This document shows positions 433 to 32,418 of a stretch of DNA of 43,265 nt, piece after piece (position 1 is the stretch's first letter; each line of letters opens with the position of its first letter). Where the stretch lies: the IMG/VR virus record IMGVR_UViG_3300045996_001143, positions 1 to 43,265 of that record. One strand, 5' to 3'. The position numbers and the translations under genes were made by a program. The DNA is from a virus. The notes under the pieces were generated by a model. That model searched no databases. It saw nothing but the letters and a program-made list of their open reading frames with translations, and had not been told where the DNA came from.

Positions 433-2256
433 ATGTTAACCACTGAACCCCCGGCCCGGATACCTTCCGAGATGATGGGGACCTACCAGTTGGCCTCAGA
501 CATTGGAGCGCCGAGTTACACACTCGGCCGGGACTATGCTATTCCGGCCCTTCAGAAGCTGGTCCGAGATAATCAGCTCCTGGCCGTCGATATCGAGACC
601 TACGGGCTAGGGCTGGATGCACGTCATATCAAGTGCGTTCAGTTCGCTGACGATAACTCGGCCGTGATCCTCGATCCCAGAGATCCGGCCCAGGAAATGG
701 CTATCCAGTGGGCACTCCGGACCCTGAGATGGCTGGCCTTCCACAAGTCCTCTTTCGATGTTCCCAACCTTTGCGTTAACGGCCTGATGGACCTGGAAAG
801 TATCGCCAAAGTCTGGGACGTTCTGATCTATGCCCGGATGGCTGAGCCAGATGAGAGGACAGCCAAGAGCCTCGGAAAGTGTGCTGAGCGCTGGCTGGGC
901 TTCCCTCCTGGCACCCCTATGGAGAAGGTCTTTCGCCGGCTTGGCATGACCAAGAAGGAAGGATTCTATCTGGGGGACATCAATCAGCCTCTCTACGTGG
1001 AAAGAGCCGCTATCGATCCGATCCTGACTTTCCGGCTCTTACCCATCGTCCGTAAGGCCGCGTATCTCCGGACGATCTCTGATCACCCCTTCACAGTGAC
1101 AGGGGTCAAGGGCGAAGAAGCTAAGCGGCTCGTGGACCGAGAGCAACGGATTAACCGGCTCTTGCTCCGGAGGTCAGCCCGAGGACTCCGAGTAGATCTT
1201 GGCTTCCTGGATCGGTTCCAGGACGGCAATCGAGCCGCTATCGGAGCCGCTCAAGATCAGCTCGTAACAGCCGGCATAGCTCCGGGCAATGGAGCCTCGC
1301 TGGCCAAGTTCCTGGACGGGCTCGGGGCTTTCCCTCCTGGCTATCCACGGACACCTAAGACCAAGGCTCCCTCGACACAGGCCAAGCATCTGGAGGCTCT
1401 GAGCCATCCCATGGCCCAGACCTTTGTCCAGCACAAGCAACTCACCAAGATCCAGGATGACTACCTGGAGAAGATCCGGCTCCTGGAGCTGAACGGTCGA
1501 GTCCATCCCTCCGTTGACCTTCTGGCCGCGACTACTGGCCGAATGTCCATGTCTGATCCCCCATTCCAACAGTTCCCGGCCCCAGCTCGGGGGATCGTGC
1601 TAGCCGATGAAAGGGACTCCCTGACCTCTATCGACTGGTCTCAGATCGAGCCGGTAGTGATCGCCAACATAGCCAAGGACATGAGAGTGCTTCGAGGCTA
1701 TGAGGATGGGACCTCTGACCTTTATACCGATATCGGAGGGCTGGCCCGAGTAGACCGGAAAGTGGCTAAGGTCATCGTCCTGGCTCAGATGTACGGGGAA
1801 GGGATGGAAAAGCTGGCCGGAGATCTCGGAGTGACCCTGGATCGGGCCTACGAGCTGAGAACAGCGGTCTTCTCGGCCATGCCTATGGTCAAGCGGCTGA
1901 TCTGGCAGCTCCGAGACATAGGGGAGAAGCACCTGAAGGTCTTCACTCTGTCCGGCCGGATTCTTACTGTCCCCTCTGGCTCTGACTGGGTAGCTACTCA
2001 TAAGGCCGTGAACTACTTTGTCCAGGGCTCGGCCTATGACGTTCTGGCTGAAGCTCTGATCCGGATCGAGGAAGCCGGCCTAGGGGATGCTGTCTATCTG
2101 GCCATGCATGATGAGCTGATCGTTTCCAGCTCCGTTGCTCTTGAGATCGAGATGATCATGAGACAGCCTCCTGAGCGGCTCTGTTTCCTGGCCGGCCGGA
2201 CTCCTGTGCTCCGTACTGACCTAGTGGAGCTGGGGGAAAGGTGGGCCGCTGCGTGA
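433..2256 (+). CDS. polA: Family A DNA polymerase with 3'-5' exonuclease domain
   Basis: A 607-aa phage replicative polymerase. Exonuclease motifs: ExoI around D53/E55 (VDIETYG), ExoII at D109, ExoIII at D195. Polymerase motifs: A at D401 (DWSQIE), B from R442 to Y454 with K446, C at H559-D560-E561. No 5'-nuclease domain is present, as is usual in phage. Three things are odd. Position 450, equivalent to Taq F667 and E. coli F762, is Leu. The motif A stretch after QIE is PVV instead of the usual LRV. The ExoIII Tyr four residues before D195 is Arg191. AGGAG at 417-421 lies 11 nt before ATG433; a later in-frame ATG exists at 472. The 3' end overlaps a small membrane gene (GTGA), so it is coupled to the downstream primase-helicase. 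Confidence 0.95.
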   Translation: MLTTEPPARIPSEMMGTYQLASDIGAPSYTLGRDYAIPALQKLVRDNQLLAVDIETYGLGLDARHIKCVQFADDNSAVILDPRDPAQEMAIQWALRTLRWLAFHKSSFDVPNLCVNGLMDLESIAKVWDVLIYARMAEPDERTAKSLGKCAERWLGFPPGTPMEKVFRRLGMTKKEGFYLGDINQPLYVERAAIDPILTFRLLPIVRKAAYLRTISDHPFTVTGVKGEEAKRLVDREQRINRLLLRRSARGLRVDLGFLDRFQDGNRAAIGAAQDQLVTAGIAPGNGASLAKFLDGLGAFPPGYPRTPKTKAPSTQAKHLEALSHPMAQTFVQHKQLTKIQDDYLEKIRLLELNGRVHPSVDLLAATTGRMSMSDPPFQQFPAPARGIVLADERDSLTSIDWSQIEPVVIANIAKDMRVLRGYEDGTSDLYTDIGGLARVDRKVAKVIVLAQMYGEGMEKLAGDLGVTLDRAYELRTAVFSAMPMVKRLIWQLRDIGEKHLKVFTLSGRILTVPSGSDWVATHKAVNYFVQGSAYDVLAEALIRIEEAGLGDAVYLAMHDELIVSSSVALEIEMIMRQPPERLCFLAGRTPVLRTDLVELGERWAAA

Positions 2257-2372
2257 TCTATGTCTTTTTGGCCTTTACCATGATCAATCTCATGATCCTA
2301 GGTCTCAATCTGAAGCTTTATACGGAGTACTTCAAAGACCGCTCCATTGCCAGGAGAAGGGATCAAGCCTGA
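2253..2372 (+). CDS. 39-aa single-pass membrane peptide between polymerase and primase
   Basis: The GTG at 2253 overlaps the polymerase stop (GTGA), and the TGA at 2370-2372 overlaps the primase start (TGATG), so all three genes are translationally coupled. The N-terminal half is a membrane segment (roughly residues 2-20, FLAFTMINLMILGLNL). The C-terminal half is basic and polar (KDRSIARRRD), predicting a cytoplasmic tail. A purine-rich GGGGGAAAGG precedes the start. I do not recognise a family. A membrane peptide in a replication operon could tether the replisome to the envelope, but that is inference. The tight overlap at both ends is the main reason for calling it real. Confidence 0.7.
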   Translation: MIYVFLAFTMINLMILGLNLKLYTEYFKDRSIARRRDQA

Positions 2373-4699
2373 TGATCGCCAATCCGGATGTGATCAAAGA
2401 GCACTTCGGCCATGTTGCTCCAGGGGATCTTTCCAAGATCAATGAGATCATCCGATGGGCTGTCAAGGACGGCCTGGCCATCGTGCTTAATCGGCCCGGA
2501 ACCAAGCAACCACTCTGCACTTTGACAGCTCGGCAGGCCAAGACCGCTGACGTAGCCGCTCAGAGGGACGCTCGGGAGGCTGGCCGGCATGACTGGCACC
2601 GGAAGCGCCATGCCTGTGGGATCGCTCATGCCTTCATCGAACCTGGGAAGAGCTATGACGCCATAGTCAAGAGGGCTCTGGCCACGTACGGCTCTATCAA
2701 TATCGGTGTAGAAGTCGGCCGGAGCCGGATGGTCGTGGTGGACGTGGACACCGAGGCCCAGAGCCAGAGCTTCCTGGAGGACTGGCAAAGTGCTGAGGGA
2801 GGCTTCCAGATGGGAAGGTCCCTGACGGTCAAGTCCCCCGGCTCCAAGAACGAGACCGGAGATTGGGTCCACAGCTCCGGAGGACACTTCTGGTTCACCG
2901 TGCCGGATGATGTGGAGCTACCCGAGGGCTCAGGGGCTCTGAAGGCCCCTGGAGGCTACGCCGTGATGTGGGCCAAGCATCAGGTCCTGGTCCCTCCCTC
3001 GGTACGTGAGGAAGGCCCCTATGTGGCTGTGGGCTCGGTCGAGCGAGTCCCGAGCTTCCTGATCCAGATGATCAAGGATCAGACCCTAGCTCGGGATGAA
3101 CGCTACCGGGCTAATGCGGACAAGCTCCTGGACGCCAATGATCCGATAGACCGTCACTTTGCTGGCATGGACTGGGAAGAAGAGATCCTGGTCCCCGAGG
3201 GCTGGACAGCTACCGGGCTCGTGGATACGTGCTCATGCCCTATTGTGACGGCTCCGGGCCTGCACGCCTCGAAGAAGTCCGCCACAGCTCATAATCTCGG
3301 ATGCACTCTCTACAACACTGAGACCGGATCTGGACCGCTCCACATCTGGACCGACAACCCTCCTGAGTTCCTCACTGTCCCCTTCAGTCAGGGCATCCGG
3401 ACCTTCACCAAGCTCCAGTATCTGGCCTGGCGTGATCATGAAGGTTCGATGTCTCGGGCCATGGTTGCCGCTGGCCTGAAGGAAGGAGACTCGGAATTCT
3501 CTTCTCCTGAGGTAGAGGACCTGGATCTAGCAGCTCAGGAAGGGACGAGGGGGACGGGGCTCTCTGCCCAGGAGCCGGCTGACATGTTCACTGATGCTGA
3601 TGAGCCCGAGGATGGCATAACAGAAACCGACTCCGAGCCAGAAGCCGAGCGGCTCGAAGATTCGGTAGAAGTGATGTGGTCGGAGTTCCTCGGCCCGGAG
3701 GAACTGGACGCTCTCCCTGATCCCGTTCCTTTGGTAGAAGGAATGCTGGATCTGAACACGTTGGCCCGGATCAATGGGAAGCCCGGCCATGGAAAGAGCT
3801 TCCTGGCTCTGGACATGGCCTGCTCGATCTCTCTTGGACGTTCTTGGCACGGGTACAGGGTACGGCAAGGCCGAGTGGCGTACATCGCCGCTGAGGGGGT
3901 CCAGGGGCTCAAGAAACGGAAGAAGGCTTGGGAACAGTTCTACGGTGTCACGCTGTCCCGCGAAGACATCCTCTTTCTTCCTCGGCCGGTCCAGATCGGT
4001 AGTGATACTACGTCCTGGCGATTGCTGATCAAGGCTCTAGAGCGATGGAAGCCGGTCTTGGTGATCTTGGACACTCAGGCCCGGATGACTCTTGGATCTG
4101 AAGAGAATTCCACTAAGGACATGAGCATCATTGCCGAGCGGATCGATCAGATGAAGCGGGCTACCGGAGCGTGTGTCCTGGTCATCCATCACATGGGCCA
4201 TAGTGGGGAACATGGCCGGGGGTCCTCAGCCCTTCTGGGAGCGATGGATACGGAGATAGCGGTCAGCAAGAAAGAGACCACTGTGATCCTGAGCAACTCC
4301 AAACAGAAGGAGTCGGCCCAGTTCGAGGACATCCGGCTACGGCTCCAGCCTCACGGAGAATCGGCTGTGTTGGTAGGGGCTGATGAAGATCCGGACGGCT
4401 TTGCTATTGCCGAGCTGCACGGGTCTCCGGAGGAACGGATGGCCCGGCTGATCTGGACTTACTACCGGCACGGGGACGGCTGTCTTCGGGCACAAGCGGT
4501 TAGGACGGTCAAGGAGTATGACCTGGACGAGAAGGGCCACTGTCGGATGGGCAAGGACAGCAACATCGGCAAGGTTTTTGACCGGCTCAAGGAGAACGGG
4601 GCTCTAGATCGGATGGTTGACGGAGCTACCGGCCGTGTCACTAAGAACTACAAGCTCAAGGCTGAGTGGGCACAGCGGCTAGGGCTGGAAAATACATAG
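2372..4699 (+). CDS. Bifunctional primase-polymerase / RepA-like helicase
   Basis: A 775-aa two-domain replication initiator. The N-terminal half is a prim-pol (archaeo-eukaryotic primase fold): metal-binding D124-V-D126 inside VVVDVD, H167 and H172 in HSSGGHFWF, then a conserved VLVPPS segment. An acidic linker follows (about residues 385-440). The C-terminal half is a RepA/RecA-type ATPase: Walker A GKPGHGKS at 469-476, Walker B VLVILD ending at D567, then IHHMGHSG. The last 60 or so residues look like a winged helix. The same architecture serves as primase-helicase in actinophages and as the replication protein in many actinobacterial integrative elements. AGGAGAAGG sits about 10 nt before ATG2372. 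A candidate origin follows directly downstream. Confidence 0.9.
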   Translation: MIANPDVIKEHFGHVAPGDLSKINEIIRWAVKDGLAIVLNRPGTKQPLCTLTARQAKTADVAAQRDAREAGRHDWHRKRHACGIAHAFIEPGKSYDAIVKRALATYGSINIGVEVGRSRMVVVDVDTEAQSQSFLEDWQSAEGGFQMGRSLTVKSPGSKNETGDWVHSSGGHFWFTVPDDVELPEGSGALKAPGGYAVMWAKHQVLVPPSVREEGPYVAVGSVERVPSFLIQMIKDQTLARDERYRANADKLLDANDPIDRHFAGMDWEEEILVPEGWTATGLVDTCSCPIVTAPGLHASKKSATAHNLGCTLYNTETGSGPLHIWTDNPPEFLTVPFSQGIRTFTKLQYLAWRDHEGSMSRAMVAAGLKEGDSEFSSPEVEDLDLAAQEGTRGTGLSAQEPADMFTDADEPEDGITETDSEPEAERLEDSVEVMWSEFLGPEELDALPDPVPLVEGMLDLNTLARINGKPGHGKSFLALDMACSISLGRSWHGYRVRQGRVAYIAAEGVQGLKKRKKAWEQFYGVTLSREDILFLPRPVQIGSDTTSWRLLIKALERWKPVLVILDTQARMTLGSEENSTKDMSIIAERIDQMKRATGACVLVIHHMGHSGEHGRGSSALLGAMDTEIAVSKKETTVILSNSKQKESAQFEDIRLRLQPHGESAVLVGADEDPDGFAIAELHGSPEERMARLIWTYYRHGDGCLRAQAVRTVKEYDLDEKGHCRMGKDSNIGKVFDRLKENGALDRMVDGATGRVTKNYKLKAEWAQRLGLENT

Positions 4700-4862
4700 C
4701 CTCTCGAAGTGAATCGAGTAGTGAAAGAGAAGTGAAAGACGAAAAATATTTCGTTAGTGACTGGCAGTAGGTAAGAGAAGTGAATTTTGGGTAAAACCCC
4801 TAGTCAGAGCGTAGGTAATCGAAAGGTAATGAGGTCGGCCGAGGATGTGAGGGTAATAGGTA
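4700..4862. other. Candidate replication origin (iteron-like, AT-rich non-coding region)
   Basis: This 163-nt non-coding stretch is visibly AT-richer than its surroundings. It carries several short repeats. AGTGAA occurs four times (4708, 4720, 4731, 4779), the first three spaced 12 and 11 bp apart, close to a helical turn. GTAGGTAA occurs at 4767 and 4811, with related GGTAAT sites at 4814, 4825 and 4852. TAGTGACT occurs at 4755 and 4861. An AT-rich dyad CGAAAAATATTTCG lies at 4740-4753. Repeats in phase, an AT-rich element and position next to the prim-pol/helicase gene are what an origin would show. A promoter with operators for the next operon is the alternative. Confidence 0.45.
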
Positions 4863-4895
4863 GTGACTCTCTCTCTCTTAGGAGAGTCACCTTTT
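4863..4895 (+). terminator. Rho-independent terminator of the replication operon
   Basis: Perfect 9-bp stem GTGACTCTC (4863-4871) / GAGAGTCAC (4882-4890), a 10-nt loop and then CTTTT. The T-run on the plus strand orients it as the terminator of rightward transcription from the polymerase/primase operon. Confidence 0.7.
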
Positions 4896-4932
4896 ACCCA
4901 TCCTTACCTTTTTGGCCCGTTCTGGAGGAAAG

Positions 4933-5412
4933 ATGATCATGGACAAAGAATGCAAGGACTGTAGGGCTGAGGACCGGGCTGGGGCTAAGTTGGCGGCTCC
5001 CTATCCGGGGCCTCGGTGCTATCGGCACTACCAAGCTCGGAGGAAGCGCAACAGAGCCAAGGCCCGAGCTGGGAGGCTGGGAGCCAAGTTCGGGCTGACT
5101 GAGGACGAATACCAGCGGCTCTATGCGGCACAGGGGGAGGCATGTGCGGGCTGTGGGCTCGTACGTGGCGGGGACGGGTCGGCCGAGCAACGGCAGAAGC
5201 GTTTACCGGTCGATCATGATCATGGATGTCCGAGCTGTGGGGGCCAGGGTTGTCGGAGCTGTGTTCGAGGCCTCTTGTGTGACTGGTGTAATCGGACAGT
5301 GGCTCGGTTTCAGGAACAGCCCTGGAGGATCGAGCGGCTAGCTCGGTATTTGGAGAACCCTCCGGCTCAAGCTGTCCTAGCGTCCATGGATGATGTAGGC
5401 TCTATGTCATGA
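4933..5412 (+). CDS. Recombination endonuclease VII-like HNH nuclease
   Basis: A 159-aa protein of the phage T4 gp49/endonuclease VII family, which cleaves branched DNA before packaging. A zinc site is formed by C71/C74 and C116/C119. The catalytic core is VDHDH (D94-H97), followed by the family's RGLLCDWCN. An extra Cys-rich loop (CPSCGGQGCRSC, about 99-110) sits between the core and the RGLLC motif. The N-terminus has another C7/C10 pair and a basic helix rich in Arg/Lys. GGAGG at 4924-4928 serves either ATG4933 or ATG4939, the latter with better spacing. The earlier in-frame TTG at 4912 is rejected because it lies before the ribosome site. The stop overlaps the next gene (ATGA). Confidence 0.9.
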   Translation: MIMDKECKDCRAEDRAGAKLAAPYPGPRCYRHYQARRKRNRAKARAGRLGAKFGLTEDEYQRLYAAQGEACAGCGLVRGGDGSAEQRQKRLPVDHDHGCPSCGGQGCRSCVRGLLCDWCNRTVARFQEQPWRIERLARYLENPPAQAVLASMDDVGSMS

Positions 5413-5660: not shown

Positions 5661-6087
5661 TCGAGAGCCCGAGGCTGTCTCTTTGGAGGACTGGCGTGCT
5701 CGGAAGATGTGGCGAGAGATCGAGAAGGCTACTTTGCCGGACCTGATCGCTGATGAGTTCGGCCTTCGAGCTGGACAGTCGCTCCAGGCTGACCTGGACA
5801 AGGCCGGCCACTTGACCAGCGAGGAACGTTACGCCGAGTTTCCTCCGAGTTATGACATAGCGAGTCCGAGGCGCTATGAGCTTGGAGGCCCGATCTTCTC
5901 GACTCCTTCAACCCCTTTGAACCGTGTTAGCCAGGGCCAGGAACGTACGCAGGAAGAGCTGGCAGAGATCCGGGCTCAAGTGCATGAAGCCGTGATCCGG
6001 GAGCGCCGTAGGGCTTGGACAATGTGGGCCGTGGTCGCTCTGGCCGCTCTGATCGTCGCTCTGATCTTCTGGAGGATGAACTTCTGA
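5653..6087 (+). CDS. Tail-anchored membrane protein of unknown function
   Basis: A 144-aa protein. Residues 1-117 or so are soluble and charged (MSDREPEAVSLEDW at the start). A probable amphipathic/coiled helix follows (RTQEELAEIRAQVHEAVIRERRRA). A single C-terminal membrane span, WAVVALAALIVALIFW, sits at about 122-140. This topology puts the bulk of the protein in the cytoplasm. The start ATG5653 overlaps the preceding stop and is preceded by AAAGGATGG; an in-frame extension back to 5491 lies inside the previous gene and is rejected. The stop is coupled to the next gene (TGATG). No family recognised. It is one of several small membrane proteins around the FtsK-like gene. Confidence 0.7.
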   Translation: MSDREPEAVSLEDWRARKMWREIEKATLPDLIADEFGLRAGQSLQADLDKAGHLTSEERYAEFPPSYDIASPRRYELGGPIFSTPSTPLNRVSQGQERTQEELAEIRAQVHEAVIRERRRAWTMWAVVALAALIVALIFWRMNF

Positions 6088-6224
6088 TGACCGAGCTAAG
6101 CCATGAGCGACTTTCTCAGAAGTTGAAGTCACACGATGATGTCTTTCAAAGCGCAATCATCCCTCGGAAACGCTCCAAGACAGGCCCTCTCGACACATTG
6201 TCGAAAGGGTGGGTATCCGCATGA
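6087..6224 (+). CDS. 45-aa protein, N-terminus paralogous to next gene
   Basis: It begins MTELSHERLSQ, against MTEPSHSRLSQ in the following gene, so the two share 9 of 11 opening residues. After that it diverges and ends at residue 45, while its neighbour continues to 170. GGAGG lies 11 nt upstream inside the preceding gene, with TGATG coupling; the stop overlaps the next ATG (ATGA). It may be a truncated duplicate or a short independent peptide. No function recognised. Confidence 0.6.
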   Translation: MTELSHERLSQKLKSHDDVFQSAIIPRKRSKTGPLDTLSKGWVSA

Positions 6225-6733
6225 CCGAGCCGAGCCATTCCCGTTTGTCTCAGATAGAAGCCGACATTGAAGCGCTCAAGACCTGGGCTCAGCAAGCTCA
6301 GGCCGCTCTGGACGATATAGGCCCTGCCGTCCGTTACTTAGCCGTTCATGCTAGTCCCCGGCCTCCTGTCTATGAAAAAGATCCGTTGCAACCGTTCCGG
6401 AAAGCTCGTACGGTCGCAGAGGCTGAGCGAGATGGCTTGCCGAGCAATCTGGAGATTCCATCATTCCCAAGCCGATCCGGTACTGGCCAATGGTGGTTTA
6501 TCCGGGATGCGGGACCCCAGAGCTATCAGATCCCTTTGGGTCAGCCTCGGGCTGATCAGATCTTTATGGCCGGCCTAATTGTGGATTCTCTTACAGGAAC
6601 GGTCAAGACCTTCTCGACTGAGGCCTCTACTCCGGACTCTCTGAAGTCCATTGGCGTGGCTAGCTTGGCTCGGACCATCTCGGAGTTCCGGATGGAGCTA
6701 GGGAAGCTTCAGCAACGGCCGATGCAGTCCTAG
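6221..6733 (+). CDS. Unknown 170-aa protein with N-terminal coiled coil
   Basis: Starts at ATG6221, overlapping the preceding stop (ATGA); an upstream in-frame GTG at 6209 is less likely. The N-terminus is a short predicted coiled coil (RLSQIEADIEALKTWAQQAQAALDDI). A middle region reads SGTGQWWFIRDAGPQSYQIP, and the C-terminus is helical. No membrane segment or cysteine motif is visible. It sits immediately before the FtsK-like gene, separated by 57 nt. I do not recognise a family. Its place suggests a soluble partner of the membrane-associated genes around it, but the sequence does not prove this. Confidence 0.7.
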   Translation: MTEPSHSRLSQIEADIEALKTWAQQAQAALDDIGPAVRYLAVHASPRPPVYEKDPLQPFRKARTVAEAERDGLPSNLEIPSFPSRSGTGQWWFIRDAGPQSYQIPLGQPRADQIFMAGLIVDSLTGTVKTFSTEASTPDSLKSIGVASLARTISEFRMELGKLQQRPMQS

Positions 6734-6790
6734 AGACGGTAGTGGGACACCTGGAGTAGTCTGGATGGCCTAGACCTCTCGGAGGAGACC

Positions 6791-9028
6791 GTGCCAAGGC
6801 CATCCAGAGTACGTATAGACGATCCGTTAGAGATCGTCCTCTATTGGATCTGGCTTGCCCTCACCTTCTGGATACGGGCCTATTTCCGTTACTTCTGGCT
6901 TGCTACTCCAGTCCTGACGGGGGAGCCGAAGGATAATGCGACCTTCAACCACGCGGCTGACAAGGACTACCGGGGCCGGCCGGCCGGAGCCGAGAAGCTC
7001 TCCAAACCGAAGAAGTACCGGCTAGCTCGGCGCTGGGCCTTCATCGGGATCTTCTGCCATCTGATCGTCCTGAGCTGGATCTTGTCCCCCTGGGAGCCTC
7101 TCCTTAGCTCGATCCTTCACTGGCTGGCCATCATCTATCAGGTCGTGATCATGGCTATTGGGGGATGGTGGCTGGGGACCTGGCTTCAGAACCGTATCCG
7201 CTATCGGAAGGTCCGGAAGGACGTTATTGGCCCAGCCGCTAAGGCCGTCCGGGGAGTGGTAGGGCCGACATTCCATCTGGCCCAGGATGAGAAGATCATT
7301 AGCCTTCCCCCGAGCTATACCAAGCCCAAGCGCCGTGACGCGGCTATGGCTCCGGTCCAGGTCAATCTCCCTCAAGGCATTAACTGGACCGACTCCAAGA
7401 AGAAGCAGTTAACTGACGCGGCGGGGGGAGCGCTTGGCCTGGAGAATGCTCAAGCTGAGTTCTTCACGTCCGGGGCTAAGCCCTTTGCTTTGCTCAGTCC
7501 TCTCTCCTTGCCGGGCAAGCTGACCTTGGCCGATTGCTGGGAGTGGATCGAGAAGACGGACAAAGATCATCCCTTCATCGGGCTGGGAGCTGATGGAGGT
7601 CCTCGTTACCTCGACTACAAGGAGATCAGTCCGCACTGGCTCTGGAGTGGGCCGACTGGAACCGGCAAGACCAGCGTAGGCCGGGACATCTTCCCCCAGT
7701 GGGGACGATTCGGAGCGGCCTTGGTGATCTTCGATTACAAGAGGATCTCCAGCCTTTGGGCTCATAATTTGCCCGGCTGTCTGTACCTCTGGGAACTGGA
7801 CGACATAGAGCGAGGCGTGCTGGCTCTGGAGCAACTTCTGGAGGCCAGGAAGCGAGGTCCGATAGAACAGCTCGGTCACTATGACGATGTTGTGATCATG
7901 GCTGACGAGATCCCTTCCATGATGATGAAGCTTCAGCGGCACTATAAGAGGAAGGGCCGAACAGGAATCAGCCCGGCTGTGGAAGCCTTCCAGAACTTGA
8001 TCTTTATGGGCCGAGAGCTTCAGATTTTCTATCATCCGTTTGGTAACCGGCTCTCGGCCAAGACCTTTGGCCCGGACGGAGGGGACGCCAGAACTGCTAT
8101 AGCCGGTCGAGGCATAGCCAAGTACGATCCTCAGGCTTTCCGGATGTTGGCTGGCGGAATCCGCTATGTCCCTTGGCCCGGAGGGGGCCGGGGAATCTGG
8201 GGCCTCTTCTTTGATGACCGGCTGGACTTTGTTCGAGTTCCGCTCTGGACTGATGGAGAAGCCCGAGAAGTGTTCATGTCCGGCAAGCCCAGTCCGGATC
8301 TTCAGATCGAGATGGGCTCTCGGGTCCTAGGCGGGGATCATCCCGTCATTGCTCCCGGAGTGGACCTGAAAACCCCTGAGCTGGAATCCCGAAGAGTCAG
8401 CCTGTCCAAGGGCCTGGCTAACGTGCCAGGGCCGGCCATGGAGCTGGGGACATGGCGTAGAGCTATCGGCCGGGCCAAACAGGCAGGCTGGGGGCCGGAG
8501 CCCGTTGATTGGGAGGGAAGAACTGCCATCTATCTTCAAAGTGATCTGAACGTCTTTAAGCTGACCATTGACCAGCGCCGTAAGGTCGATTCGGGGGACG
8601 AGCCTGCTTTTCCTGGGATCATCTATGCCATCTTTGTCCGATTGCCTGACACTGGCCAGGTCGTATGTGGTTATGTCGGCCAGACTAGGAGATCTCTGGA
8701 ACAGCGATTTTCAGAGCATGAAGAAGATCAGCCTTGGGCGGACCTGATCTATGGCCCTCCTGTCAAGATCTTTGTAGATAATATCAGCCAAGCTGATCTT
8801 GACGTGCTGGAGCTTCGAGTTATGGATGAGATGAAGCCCATATTCAACTGGATTGGCAATGAGACCGCCAATGAGTTCTCTATCAGCCTAGATGAAGCTA
8901 TCGAGCAACGGTGGCAGCGTGATGACGAATTAGGCCGGCCCCGGTTCATTCCGAAGAAGGATCGGGAACCGCCAGAGCTGGAAGGGCCTCCTGAGGGGGT
9001 TGTCCTAAGTCTCAATAGGGGGAGATAA
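6791..9028 (+). CDS. Membrane-anchored FtsK/TraB-like ATPase fused to a GIY-YIG nuclease
   Basis: A 745-aa protein. Two hydrophobic regions (about 12-32 and 75-140) give an N-terminal membrane anchor. An FtsK/HerA-type motor follows: Walker A GPTGTGKT at 287-294 and Walker B VVIMADE ending D372-E373. The last 135 or so residues form a GIY-YIG endonuclease: GIIYAI at 609, YVGQTRRS from Y628, QRFSEH, and ELRVMDEMKPIFNW carrying the catalytic Glu. FtsK/TraB motors move double-stranded DNA, as in septal chromosome pumping or actinobacterial conjugation; GIY-YIG domains cut DNA. A motor and nuclease in one membrane protein could pump and cut DNA at the envelope, which is inference. GTG6791 follows GGAGGAGACC closely; no better start is seen. 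I do not recall this fusion in phages. Confidence 0.88.
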   Translation: MPRPSRVRIDDPLEIVLYWIWLALTFWIRAYFRYFWLATPVLTGEPKDNATFNHAADKDYRGRPAGAEKLSKPKKYRLARRWAFIGIFCHLIVLSWILSPWEPLLSSILHWLAIIYQVVIMAIGGWWLGTWLQNRIRYRKVRKDVIGPAAKAVRGVVGPTFHLAQDEKIISLPPSYTKPKRRDAAMAPVQVNLPQGINWTDSKKKQLTDAAGGALGLENAQAEFFTSGAKPFALLSPLSLPGKLTLADCWEWIEKTDKDHPFIGLGADGGPRYLDYKEISPHWLWSGPTGTGKTSVGRDIFPQWGRFGAALVIFDYKRISSLWAHNLPGCLYLWELDDIERGVLALEQLLEARKRGPIEQLGHYDDVVIMADEIPSMMMKLQRHYKRKGRTGISPAVEAFQNLIFMGRELQIFYHPFGNRLSAKTFGPDGGDARTAIAGRGIAKYDPQAFRMLAGGIRYVPWPGGGRGIWGLFFDDRLDFVRVPLWTDGEAREVFMSGKPSPDLQIEMGSRVLGGDHPVIAPGVDLKTPELESRRVSLSKGLANVPGPAMELGTWRRAIGRAKQAGWGPEPVDWEGRTAIYLQSDLNVFKLTIDQRRKVDSGDEPAFPGIIYAIFVRLPDTGQVVCGYVGQTRRSLEQRFSEHEEDQPWADLIYGPPVKIFVDNISQADLDVLELRVMDEMKPIFNWIGNETANEFSISLDEAIEQRWQRDDELGRPRFIPKKDREPPELEGPPEGVVLSLNRGR

Positions 9029-9078: not shown

Positions 9079-9399
9079 GTGCCTGAGCAAGATCCCGTGG
9101 TATTCGAGGACCGTCCTGGCCTGAGCAAAATGGATTGGACCGGAATAGACGTGCACAGACATAGCCCCTCTAGGGGGACAGAGCTGGCCGGTTGGAAGCT
9201 GGGGCTGAGTTTCGTCCTGACTTCCACATTCTTGTTCGCATGTTTCCGAGTCATCCTGATGGGCCATGCTGTGGCCGGATCAATTCTGGCTGTTATCTAT
9301 CTGGTAGTAATGATGATCATGAACGTCTATAACAAGCCAAATAAGGAGACATGCCACATATGCGGGAAACTTCTGGAGAAAGCACCGAGTCACCCCTAA
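9079..9399 (+). CDS. Two-span membrane protein with C-terminal Cys pair
   Basis: A 106-aa protein. GTG9079 is preceded by AAGGAGAGACC, nearly the same leader as the FtsK-like gene. Residues 1-35 or so are soluble. Two adjacent membrane spans follow (LGLSFVLTSTFLFACFRVI and AVAGSILAVIYLVVMMIM). A short tail contains CHICGK, a possible half zinc ribbon. The length and topology resemble the small Spd-type membrane proteins that accompany TraB in actinobacterial plasmids, but no sequence family is recognised. The 3' end is overlapped by the next small ORF. Confidence 0.7.
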   Translation: MPEQDPVVFEDRPGLSKMDWTGIDVHRHSPSRGTELAGWKLGLSFVLTSTFLFACFRVILMGHAVAGSILAVIYLVVMMIMNVYNKPNKETCHICGKLLEKAPSHP

Positions 9400-30018: not shown

Positions 30019-32418
30019 ATGGCCACAAGGCTTTATGGAGTTGGCACTACAGCCGCTCCAGTGTCCCCTGGCTTTGGCGCATGGACGACCACCACGGGAG
30101 CAGTTAGGCGCTCTCTGGACTTAACTAAGTCAGGGAGTGCTGAGACCCGTTCTGCCGTTGCTGTCACGTCTGGAGCTGGCAATAACGCTCTAGGCTTCCA
30201 GCTTGTCTCTGATCCGCTGAGCGGTGCTCAGACAATTACTGGAACCGTGACCATCGTCACTCGTGGCCGAGAGCTGGCCGGTACGGACAACATTGGTGCT
30301 CGTGTCCGGACAATCAAGGTTTACAGCAATGATGGGAGCACTCTTCGAGGAACACTCCTAGCCCTTGGTAACCACTCGGTCACCACTGAGCTAGGGACTA
30401 CTCTGGCCGGATATCCGGCCGCTAATGCTCAAGCTCTCAGCTCTGTCTCTGCCCAGGACGGAGATCGTATTGTCGTAGAACTGGGCTACGGATTGACCGG
30501 CACCGGAACCACGCCTCAATATGACATGGTCATTGGGGGGACCGGAACTGATCACGCTAACGCTGAGGGAGACACGACAGGAACTATTCCCTGGATTGAG
30601 TTCTCTCAGAATTTAAGCTTCCAGGTTCCGATTGTCACAGGAACAATCAGCTCTAATCTTGAATTCTCAGCCCCGGCTTCTGGAAGTTCAATCAAGCTTG
30701 GAACTTCTAGCTCTGATCTGGGCTTCTCAGGACCGGCTTCTGGCACTAACCATCCAGGCGCAATTACAGGATTGCATGTCTGGCTAGCCGCTGACAGACA
30801 AACGGGCTTGGCTGGGGGAGCGTCAGTCTCCCAATGGGACGATACTTCAGGCCTTATCAATCATGCAATACAAGCAACGTCAACAGCGCAACCTAGCTAC
30901 CAGACAAACGTCATTAACGGTAAGCCCGCAATTCGTTATGACGGTAATGATTACTTATCGATCACTAACACTGATGCACTGGCATTAACTAATAACCGAG
31001 CGGCAATTACCTTTTTCGTTGTTGCCTCGCTGTCCTCGGCAGGAAATGTACTTCGTAACCTCCTGTACTTCTCTACGGCCGCTGCGGACTCTACTCGTGC
31101 CAAACTAAGCCAGCGCACGGCTGGAGTGTGGGGATTATCTGGACGGAGGCTAGATAGTGACGGATTCGTAGCTGTAGAAGGCAGCTCGGCTACTCAAACC
31201 GGCTTCCAGATGTTCTGTGCAGTTTTTGACTGGGCTAATAGTGACGTAACGTTACGTCGTAATGGAGCCATAGAGCTATCCTCAACTGCTTTCCAAACAG
31301 ATGGCAATACTTCTCCTACCGACTCAGGAGCTGTGACAGTCGGGGGCGCAACGGCGTCCACTAGTGAGCCATGGCTTGGGGATATTGCTGAAATTCTGGT
31401 ATATGACCGTGCTTTGTCCAGTGATGAACAAGCCACTATCGAAGCCTATTTAAGTAATAAATATGGGTTAACAAGTGCGGTTACTGGAACAATCAGCTCT
31501 GATCTGGGGTTCTCAGGCCCGGCTTCCGGAGTTCTGGTCAAGCTTGGAACTTCTAGCTCTGATCTTGGTTTCTCGGCCCCTGCCTCCGGAGTTCCGGTCA
31601 AGCTCGGGACGGTCTCTACCAGTTTGGGCTTTTCGGGTTTAGCTTCTGGAATACCGGTCAAGCTCGGGACGGTCTCGACCAATCTAGGATTCTCAGCTCC
31701 GGCCGCTGGTGATTCGATCAAGCTCGGCACGGTCTCGACCAGCCTGGGCTTCTCTGGGCCGGCCACTGGGACCATTGTGGGGGCTCCGGTCACAGGCACG
31801 GCCACGGGGGCTCTGGGCTTCTCTGCTCCTGCTTCCGGCGTGCCTGTCAAGCTCGGGATCAGCTCCGTGGGGCTGGGCTTCTCCGGGCCGGCCTCGGGCT
31901 TCAAGATCGTTCAGGGGTCCTCGACTACCGGGCTCGGCTTCTCCGGGCCGGCCACGGGTTCCAAGATCGTCCAGGGGTCCTCAGTTACCGGCCTGGGATT
32001 CTCTGGGCCGGCCGCTGGCGTGCCGGTCAAGATCGGGACCAGCTCGATCAGCCTGGGCTTCTCAGCTCCGGCAACGGGAACCGTAGTCGGGATCATCACC
32101 GGGACCAGCTCGGCCAATCTGGGCTTCTCAGCTCCGGCCGCTGGCGTGCCTGTCAAGCTCGGGACCAGCTCGATCAGCCTCGGCTTCTCGGCCCCGGCCT
32201 CAGGGGCTGGCACTACTGGAGCACTGGTCACGGGCACGGCCACGGGCCTCCTGGGCTTCCTGGCTGGGGCTGTGGGAACGGTGATCAGTGCGATCCCTCC
32301 CAAGGTCCGGAAATTCCCTGTGACGCTCGGAGCTACGAGATCTTCTAGCTCCGAGCTGGGCTCAGAATCGAGCGGCCAGGCTCTAGGCTCTACCGTGGCA
32401 ACAGCCGAGAGAGGATGA
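30019..32418 (+). CDS. Large tail fibre: 20-residue repeats interrupted by a ConA-like lectin domain
   Basis: A 799-aa protein. Residues 1-205 are a beta-rich N-terminal domain seen in actinophage tail proteins (RTIKVYSNDGSTLRGTLLALG). Residues 208-243 hold two 20-residue units of the type GTSSSDLGFSAPASGVPVKL. Residues 248-489 form a ConA/LamG-like lectin or glucanase fold (GLHVWLAADRQTG, SQWDDTSG, then YDRALSSDEQATIEAYLSNKYG). The repeat then resumes from residue 490 for about 13 units. The lectin segment is AT-richer than the flanks. It is likely a glycan-binding fibre; the repeats probably form a stalk. Confidence 0.85.
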   Translation: MATRLYGVGTTAAPVSPGFGAWTTTTGAVRRSLDLTKSGSAETRSAVAVTSGAGNNALGFQLVSDPLSGAQTITGTVTIVTRGRELAGTDNIGARVRTIKVYSNDGSTLRGTLLALGNHSVTTELGTTLAGYPAANAQALSSVSAQDGDRIVVELGYGLTGTGTTPQYDMVIGGTGTDHANAEGDTTGTIPWIEFSQNLSFQVPIVTGTISSNLEFSAPASGSSIKLGTSSSDLGFSGPASGTNHPGAITGLHVWLAADRQTGLAGGASVSQWDDTSGLINHAIQATSTAQPSYQTNVINGKPAIRYDGNDYLSITNTDALALTNNRAAITFFVVASLSSAGNVLRNLLYFSTAAADSTRAKLSQRTAGVWGLSGRRLDSDGFVAVEGSSATQTGFQMFCAVFDWANSDVTLRRNGAIELSSTAFQTDGNTSPTDSGAVTVGGATASTSEPWLGDIAEILVYDRALSSDEQATIEAYLSNKYGLTSAVTGTISSDLGFSGPASGVLVKLGTSSSDLGFSAPASGVPVKLGTVSTSLGFSGLASGIPVKLGTVSTNLGFSAPAAGDSIKLGTVSTSLGFSGPATGTIVGAPVTGTATGALGFSAPASGVPVKLGISSVGLGFSGPASGFKIVQGSSTTGLGFSGPATGSKIVQGSSVTGLGFSGPAAGVPVKIGTSSISLGFSAPATGTVVGIITGTSSANLGFSAPAAGVPVKLGTSSISLGFSAPASGAGTTGALVTGTATGLLGFLAGAVGTVISAIPPKVRKFPVTLGATRSSSSELGSESSGQALGSTVATAERG
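30640..30747 (+). repeat. First two units of the 20-residue fibre repeat
   Basis: Two 60-bp units, GTISSNLEFSAPASGSSIKL and a partial GTSSSDLGFSGPASG, end abruptly where the lectin domain begins. The same phase resumes at 31486. Confidence 0.85.
31486..32285 (+). repeat. About thirteen 20-residue (60-bp) fibre repeats
   Basis: Consensus GTSSxxLGFSAPASGVPVKL. Three units are lengthened by 2-4 residues (for example TIVGAPVT, TGALVT) and the last is degenerate. The core LGFS-(A/G)-PA is nearly invariant. The DNA units remain similar enough for slippage or recombination. Confidence 0.85.

What the first reader, a model, noticed from the sequence alone, without database searches (positions are those of the whole stretch)
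6791..9028. Membrane-anchored FtsK/TraB-like translocase fused to a GIY-YIG nuclease
One protein carries membrane spans, a full FtsK/HerA-type P-loop motor (Walker A 287-294, Walker B D372-E373) and a C-terminal GIY-YIG nuclease (609 onward, Y628-V-G-Q-T, catalytic-type Glu in ELRVMDEM). FtsK motors of this kind drive chromosome pumping or actinobacterial conjugation; siphophages package with terminase and do not need one. The added nuclease suggests a membrane-located pump that also cuts DNA. It could cut host DNA, resolve or linearise phage DNA at the envelope, exclude incoming phage DNA, or support cell-to-cell transfer of an episomal form.
Basis: partly seen in the sequence, partly recalled or inferred. 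Interest (0 to 1): 0.78.

Follow-up and report, generated by a model that had tools for sequence, protein, structure and literature searches.

The report
Phage conjugation-type DNA pump plus nuclease
This actinobacterial phage carries one protein that joins a membrane-anchored DNA pump, of the kind plasmids use to move DNA between cells, to a DNA-cutting GIY-YIG nuclease; the same combination turned up in only a few other uncultured phages, in no plasmid and in no cultured phage examined, and what it does is untested.

Summary
The reading of the sequence is right. The motor belongs to the transfer (Tra) ATPases of actinobacterial plasmids. A second phage contig has the whole architecture (34-35% identity). 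A third holds its nuclease end. A fourth has the same motor and HTH fused to a different GIY-YIG family (MUG113/T5orf172). In a fifth a MUG113 nuclease gene lies 3' of an unfused motor. No plasmid or cellular homologue found carries a nuclease, nor does any of 50,697 cultured-phage records. In contigs two to four a DUF2637 membrane-protein gene follows, a family also found 5' of plasmid tra genes. I found no description of this fusion in the papers searched. Best reading: a conjugation ATPase captured by actinophages and armed with a nuclease. I favour cut-and-transfer of the phage's own episomal DNA (about 0.42) over a weapon that cuts rival plasmid or phage DNA (about 0.33). Function is inferred only; no clt (transfer) site, integrase or partition gene was found in the window. 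New variant of a known kind.

The parts
6791..9028 (+). Whole ORF: membrane-anchored Tra/FtsK-type ATPase with HTH and C-terminal GIY-YIG nuclease, 745 aa
7034..7159 (+). Two hydrophobic membrane segments (residues 82-100 and 105-123); a further predicted helix at residues 12-37
   Evidence: hydropathy and model
7349..8290 (+). Motor region (about residues 187-500), homologous to plasmid Tra proteins
   Evidence: tblastn to 50 plasmid records, alignment, Foldseek to FtsK and TcpA
7649..7672 (+). Walker A GPTGTGKT (287-294)
   Evidence: sequence, conserved in alignment
7889..7909 (+). Walker B VVIMADE (367-373)
   Evidence: sequence, alignment
8396..8581 (+). Excisionase-like HTH (about residues 536-597), the C-terminal DNA-reading head shared with plasmid Tra proteins
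   Evidence: alignments, model
8615..8860 (+). GIY-YIG nuclease core (residues 609-690); Y612, Y628, R639, H643, E674, N686
6756..6812 (+). Inverted repeat with 16-nt arms enclosing the Shine-Dalgarno and GTG start; predicted RNA hairpin
   Evidence: z-score -3.0, 0 of 200 shuffles fold as well
9079..9399 (+). Small two-helix membrane protein directly 3' of the fusion, in the place where relatives have DUF2637; not itself DUF2637

Best explanation
The protein is a dsDNA translocase taken from the conjugation (Tra/TcpA-like) ATPases of actinobacterial plasmids and fused to a GIY-YIG endonuclease. Most likely it moves the phage's own intracellular DNA. A hexamer sits in the membrane at a septum or cell contact. 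Its HTH binds a specific site on the episomal phage DNA. The GIY-YIG domain nicks or cuts there, opening circular or concatemeric DNA. The motor then pumps the DNA across the envelope into the neighbouring hyphal compartment or cell, with small membrane proteins (DUF2637 in relatives) as partners. Shown computationally: domains, catalytic residues, homology to plasmid transfer ATPases, recurrence of the fusion, DUF2637 linkage in relatives. Inferred: hexamer, DNA site, cutting, transfer.
For: The motor is homologous to plasmid Tra proteins, and the model matches FtsK on DNA and the conjugation ATPase TcpA. The C-terminal HTH is shared with plasmid Tra. DUF2637 genes lie next to tra on plasmids pPR2 and pFRL6 and directly 3' of the fusion in L009, L026 and L032. 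A TcpC-type conjugation gene follows tra on pFRL6. [quoted passage not shown] Catalytic residues are kept in all copies.
Against: The window itself has no DUF2637, no recognised integrase or partition gene and no clear clt-like repeat array. None of the conjugative-plasmid homologues found has the nuclease, so plasmid transfer does not need it. The window motor is fast-evolving (branch 2.14) and has GN where most of the family has AQ at the likely sensor position.
Confidence: 0.42

Rival explanations
1. A weapon against other mobile DNA ('HerA/FtsK capture'). The phage has taken a plasmid transfer motor with its HTH so that it binds the transfer sites, or mixes into the hexamers, of resident conjugative plasmids or competing phages, and the fused nuclease destroys that DNA.
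For: The nuclease is found only on phage versions, never on plasmid ones. Two different GIY-YIG families sit at the same place, as in conflict systems where effectors are exchanged. The window motor diverges fast. HerA/FtsK plus HTH plus endonuclease is a described anti-invader theme (PMC10853773).
Against: DUF2637 linkage in three contigs fits transfer better. There are only weak, short P-loop matches to PADLOC defence models. The accessory modules of the described capture systems were not seen among the annotated neighbours.
Confidence: 0.33
2. A lytic-cycle enzyme: it cuts host chromosome or processes branched or concatemeric phage DNA at the membrane, helping replication or nucleotide supply.
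For: It lies between replication genes (polymerase A, primase-helicase, endonuclease VII at 433-5412) and the terminase on the same strand.
Against: A membrane pump with an HTH from plasmid transfer proteins is not needed for this, an endonuclease VII is already present, and the related cultured phages Nyceirae and Rowa show no such gene in their annotation.
Confidence: 0.15
3. A functionless or decaying fusion: a homing-type GIY-YIG domain landed at the end of a captured tra gene and neither part matters to the phage.
For: Free-standing GIY-YIG homing endonucleases are frequent in phages (general knowledge). The window copy is fast-evolving.
Against: Same domain order at 34-35% identity in L009, with catalytic and Walker residues kept; a second nuclease family at the same place in L026; an intact 745-codon frame.
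Confidence: 0.08

Closest known systems
Tra/pRL2-11 (DUF87) transfer ATPases of actinobacterial plasmids (e.g. pFRL6, pPR2, pPSED03, Pseudonocardia p1)
   Same: Membrane helices, FtsK-type motor and excisionase-like C-terminal HTH in the same order; DUF2637 genes near tra on pPR2 and pFRL6
   Different: No nuclease domain in any homologue found; 22-29% identity; plasmid, not phage
TcpA (pCW3) and TraB (Streptomyces) conjugation ATPases; FtsK/SpoIIIE
   Same: Motor fold (Foldseek to 6o1x and 6t8b); membrane anchor; C-terminal DNA-reading domain
   Different: Sequence identity only 14-16%; fused GIY-YIG nuclease
GIY-YIG nucleases (UvrC N-domain, PF01541; MUG113/T5orf172 in L026)
   Same: Fold and catalytic residues
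   Different: Fused behind a membrane translocase and an HTH; PF01541 score below the curated cut-off
HerA/FtsK capture systems (DndH and others, PMC10853773)
   Same: HerA/FtsK motor combined with HTH and endonuclease; motor taken from mobile elements
   Different: Those use REase or 3'-5' exonuclease domains with Orc/Cdc6, D5 helicase or Dnd modules; here GIY-YIG, membrane helices and a phage home
Streptomyces plasmid-phage pZL12
   Same: A phage that uses a plasmid-type tra gene to transfer (PMC3583192)
   Different: No nuclease fusion reported in the passages read; its Tra protein was not compared here and the original paper could not be read

Membership tests
GIY-YIG nuclease superfamily | GIY and YIG motifs with catalytic Arg, His/Tyr, Glu and Asn | tested here: met
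   GIIYAI, YVGQT, R639, H643, E674, N686; last four invariant in all relatives
GIY-YIG nuclease superfamily | Curated Pfam score PF01541 (22.6 bits) | tested here: not met
   16.0 bits for the domain alone; L009 16.8; L026 passes MUG113 and T5orf172
GIY-YIG nuclease superfamily | Beta-beta-alpha-beta-alpha fold | tested here: met
   Model order E9-17 E24-32 H36-46 E58-63 H67-81; UvrC domain the only confident match, E 0.018
GIY-YIG nuclease superfamily | DNA cutting activity | not testable with these tools
   Needs biochemistry
FtsK/TcpA-type conjugation ATPase (plasmid Tra) | Sequence homology and Walker A/B of the motor | tested here: met
FtsK/TcpA-type conjugation ATPase (plasmid Tra) | N-terminal membrane anchor | tested here: met
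FtsK/TcpA-type conjugation ATPase (plasmid Tra) | C-terminal HTH | tested here: met
   weakest in the window copy
FtsK/TcpA-type conjugation ATPase (plasmid Tra) | Partner transfer genes nearby | tested here: inconclusive
   DUF2637 next to the fusion in L009, L026, L032 but not in the window
FtsK/TcpA-type conjugation ATPase (plasmid Tra) | clt-type target repeats | tested here: inconclusive
   No convincing array near the gene
FtsK/TcpA-type conjugation ATPase (plasmid Tra) | DNA transfer activity | not testable with these tools
   Needs a mating assay
Phage-plasmid (pZL12 type) | Replication and partition genes of a plasmid, or integrase, plus tra | tested here: inconclusive
   polymerase A, primase-helicase and excisionase-type HTH genes, but no integrase or partition gene recognised among the ORFs scanned; record ends not closed
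HerA/FtsK capture defence | HerA/FtsK plus HTH plus active endonuclease with known accessory modules | tested here: inconclusive
   The domain triad is present; no accessory module among the annotated neighbours; PADLOC gives only short P-loop matches

The most novel reading that the evidence does not exclude
Actinophages have built a site-specific cut-and-pump machine from plasmid conjugation ATPases. One polypeptide reads a DNA site (HTH), cuts it (GIY-YIG) and drives dsDNA through the membrane, letting phage DNA spread between hyphal compartments or cells without virions. It would be a natural one-protein answer to how a DNA circle could be threaded through a TraB-type hexamer.
Probability: 0.25. 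Interest if true: 0.85.

Novelty: new variant of a known kind. Interest (0 to 1): 0.6.

Why it matters
TraB/Tra-type conjugation in actinobacteria is reported to move dsDNA circles with one FtsK-like protein, and the mechanism of TraB-dependent chromosomal transfer is described as undetermined (PMC3218068, PMC12857230). A natural fusion of that kind of motor with a nuclease gives a single protein in which cutting, site reading and pumping can be tested together. If it moves phage DNA, it is a virion-free route of phage spread; if it attacks plasmids, it is a new kind of phage weapon. Either way an unannotated phage protein type gains a testable role.

Tried and rejected
(1) Single-protein Pfam, PHROG and NCBIfam scans of the whole protein missed the nuclease and largely the motor; only split domains, relatives and models settled it. 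(2) phmmer against PDB sequences: nothing. (3) Close relatives by back-translated patterns of P0001, of the nuclease alone and of the primase: none. (5) clt-like repeat arrays: none convincing. (6) DUF2637 in the window: absent. (7) Defence family (PADLOC): only weak P-loop matches. (8) Packaging role: rejected, since a terminase and portal are present and the protein has membrane helices. (9) Inserted homing endonuclease: rejected, because the boundary and domain order are shared with L009 and a different nuclease sits at the same place in L026. (10) Single against double origin of the fusion: the motor tree leaves L026 unresolved (73/76). (11) The 985-aa protein 5' of the free-standing nuclease in L065/L069 looks like a membrane translocase by eye (GVTGTGKS), but no Pfam family supports it and it does not match the Tra model; given little weight.

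Full report
What is there. The ORF at 6791-9028 (+) encodes 745 aa from GTG with a Shine-Dalgarno just upstream. It lies in a 43,265-base virus record with a portal protein, terminase, major capsid protein and tape measure. The capsid protein is 64% identical to that of Gordonia phage Nyceirae and 63-64% to that of Streptomyces phage Rowa, which have genomes of 41.9-42.9 kb, so the host is probably an actinobacterium and the record may be nearly complete. Those phages show no such gene in their annotation (one Nyceirae gene, 49, carries an ambiguous note 'FtsK DNA translocase; sliding clamp', but P0001 found no match in that phage).

Domains. Whole-protein scans gave almost nothing. Split, the C-terminal part matches PF01541 weakly (E 0.015, below cut-off) and a PHROG endonuclease family (E 0.007). 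The motor matches 50 plasmid records by tblastn, 46 of them Streptomyces, best E 1e-36 to a Pseudonocardia plasmid, including a protein named Tra on pFRL6. The alignment keeps Walker A (287-294), the Walker B glutamate E373, G407, R408 and the SPH motif. An AlphaFold2 model from 23 sequences (mean pLDDT 80; motor mostly 76-95, nuclease core mostly 86-94) matches DNA-bound FtsK (6t8b, E 4e-12) and the conjugation ATPase TcpA (6o1x) in the PDB. The nuclease modelled alone has the beta-beta-alpha-beta-alpha order of GIY-YIG, and its only confident PDB matches are the four chains of the UvrC GIY-YIG domain (probability 0.92-1.00, E 0.018-0.057; nothing reached E 0.001). Between motor and nuclease lies an excisionase-like HTH that aligns with the C-terminus of the plasmid Tra proteins.

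Relatives. In IMG/VR one contig (L009, 28.2 kb, with portal, capsid, tape measure, holin and endolysin genes) has the complete architecture at 34-35% identity. A second (L032) begins inside the same nuclease. R639, H643, E674 and N686 are invariant in all. A third (L026, 49 kb, with phage genes) has the same motor and HTH followed by a different GIY-YIG family, MUG113/T5orf172, well over the Pfam cut-offs. In a fourth (L012) the motor ends after the HTH and a MUG113 gene starts about 260 bases further on. That contig has two MUG113 genes in 69 kb, so this single adjacency could be chance. The window and L009 motors form a clade (99/95), while L026 is unresolved, so one or two origins of the fusion remain possible.

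Where the fusion is absent. None of the plasmid and genome homologues collected carries a nuclease after the motor. Seven whole plasmid or phage-free records behind the plasmid loci contain no PF01541 or MUG113 match (six plasmids and one Dagobah phage record, W01-W07). No cultured phage among 50,697 records has the fusion; the only match is the short motor-only protein of Streptomyces phage Dagobah. The nuclease subfamily was found in one of about 1,430 actinobacterial genome searches (396, 299, 347 and 392 genomes, possibly overlapping). There it is a free-standing protein with a C-terminal membrane helix, in an element that IMG/VR also lists as a 127.7-kb virus.

Conjugation context. DUF2637 membrane-protein genes stand 5' of tra in plasmids pPR2 and pFRL6, and directly 3' of the fusion in L009, L026 and L032 (L009 and L032 score just under the Pfam cut-off, L026 over it). 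A TcpC-family conjugation gene follows tra on pFRL6. The window has no DUF2637 gene; a small two-helix membrane protein follows instead. DUF2637 alone is not proof of transfer: Stanwilliamsviridae phages carry it with no annotated motor beside it. The literature gives the setting: actinobacterial plasmids and AICEs are reported to transfer double-stranded circular DNA with one FtsK-like Tra protein that binds clt (PMC3218068; [quoted passage not shown]

Mechanism. I favour cut-and-transfer of the phage's own episomal DNA (0.42): HTH finds a site, GIY-YIG opens it, the hexamer pumps it through the membrane. The main rival (0.33) is a weapon: PMC10853773 describes 'HerA/FtsK capture' systems in which a motor taken from mobile elements, with HTH and endonuclease, intercepts invader DNA. 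The restriction of the nuclease to phage versions and the two nuclease families suit that reading; the DUF2637 linkage suits transfer. Lytic DNA processing (0.15) and a functionless fusion (0.08) are less likely. The probabilities are judgements. No activity, site, hexamer or lysogenic state was shown.

Caveats. The window copy is the more diverged of the two complete PF01541-type copies: long motor branch, GN in place of AQ at the likely sensor position, weakest HTH match. Sample sizes are small: two complete PF01541-type fusions, one fragment and one MUG113 fusion. Literature coverage is limited to open papers, so a description elsewhere cannot be excluded.

Noticed in passing
window 6756-6812: Inverted repeat with 16-nt arms (94% complementary) enclosing the Shine-Dalgarno and GTG start of the fusion gene; folds better than 200 of 200 shuffles. 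Possible hairpin or operator control of a potentially harmful protein.
   Followed up: partly
L065:6402-10305 (same element as L069:892-8666): A Pseudonocardiales element listed as a 127.7-kb virus carries a free-standing, membrane-tailed relative of the window's nuclease directly 3' of a 985-aa membrane protein with a Walker A motif, and a second GIY-YIG gene close by.
   Followed up: partly
L002:2547-3476 and L011, L013-L019, L021-L025, L027: A short motor-only (about 310 aa) branch of the same Tra family, without hydropathy-predicted membrane helices in the Dagobah member, recurs in viral contigs and cultured Streptomyces phage Dagobah, and as a second gene 3' of tra in Streptomyces genomes (L033, L047, L051 and others). 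Function unknown.
   Followed up: partly
window 30019-30630; L028 (G001:19805-20419): The first about 200 residues of a virion-type protein are 62% identical between the window and the L009 phage, although their other proteins share almost nothing except the fusion.
   Followed up: no
Streptomyces phages such as Enygma (L072:4932-5828): DUF2637-like membrane proteins occur in 37 Streptomyces phage records of about 130 kb with no annotated translocase beside them.
   Followed up: no
window 6087-6120 and 6221-6254; 31870-32199: A 34-nt imperfect direct repeat, one copy at the start of a short ORF and one near the start of the next; and a 60-bp coding tandem repeat in the virion-type protein 30019-32418.
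   Followed up: no
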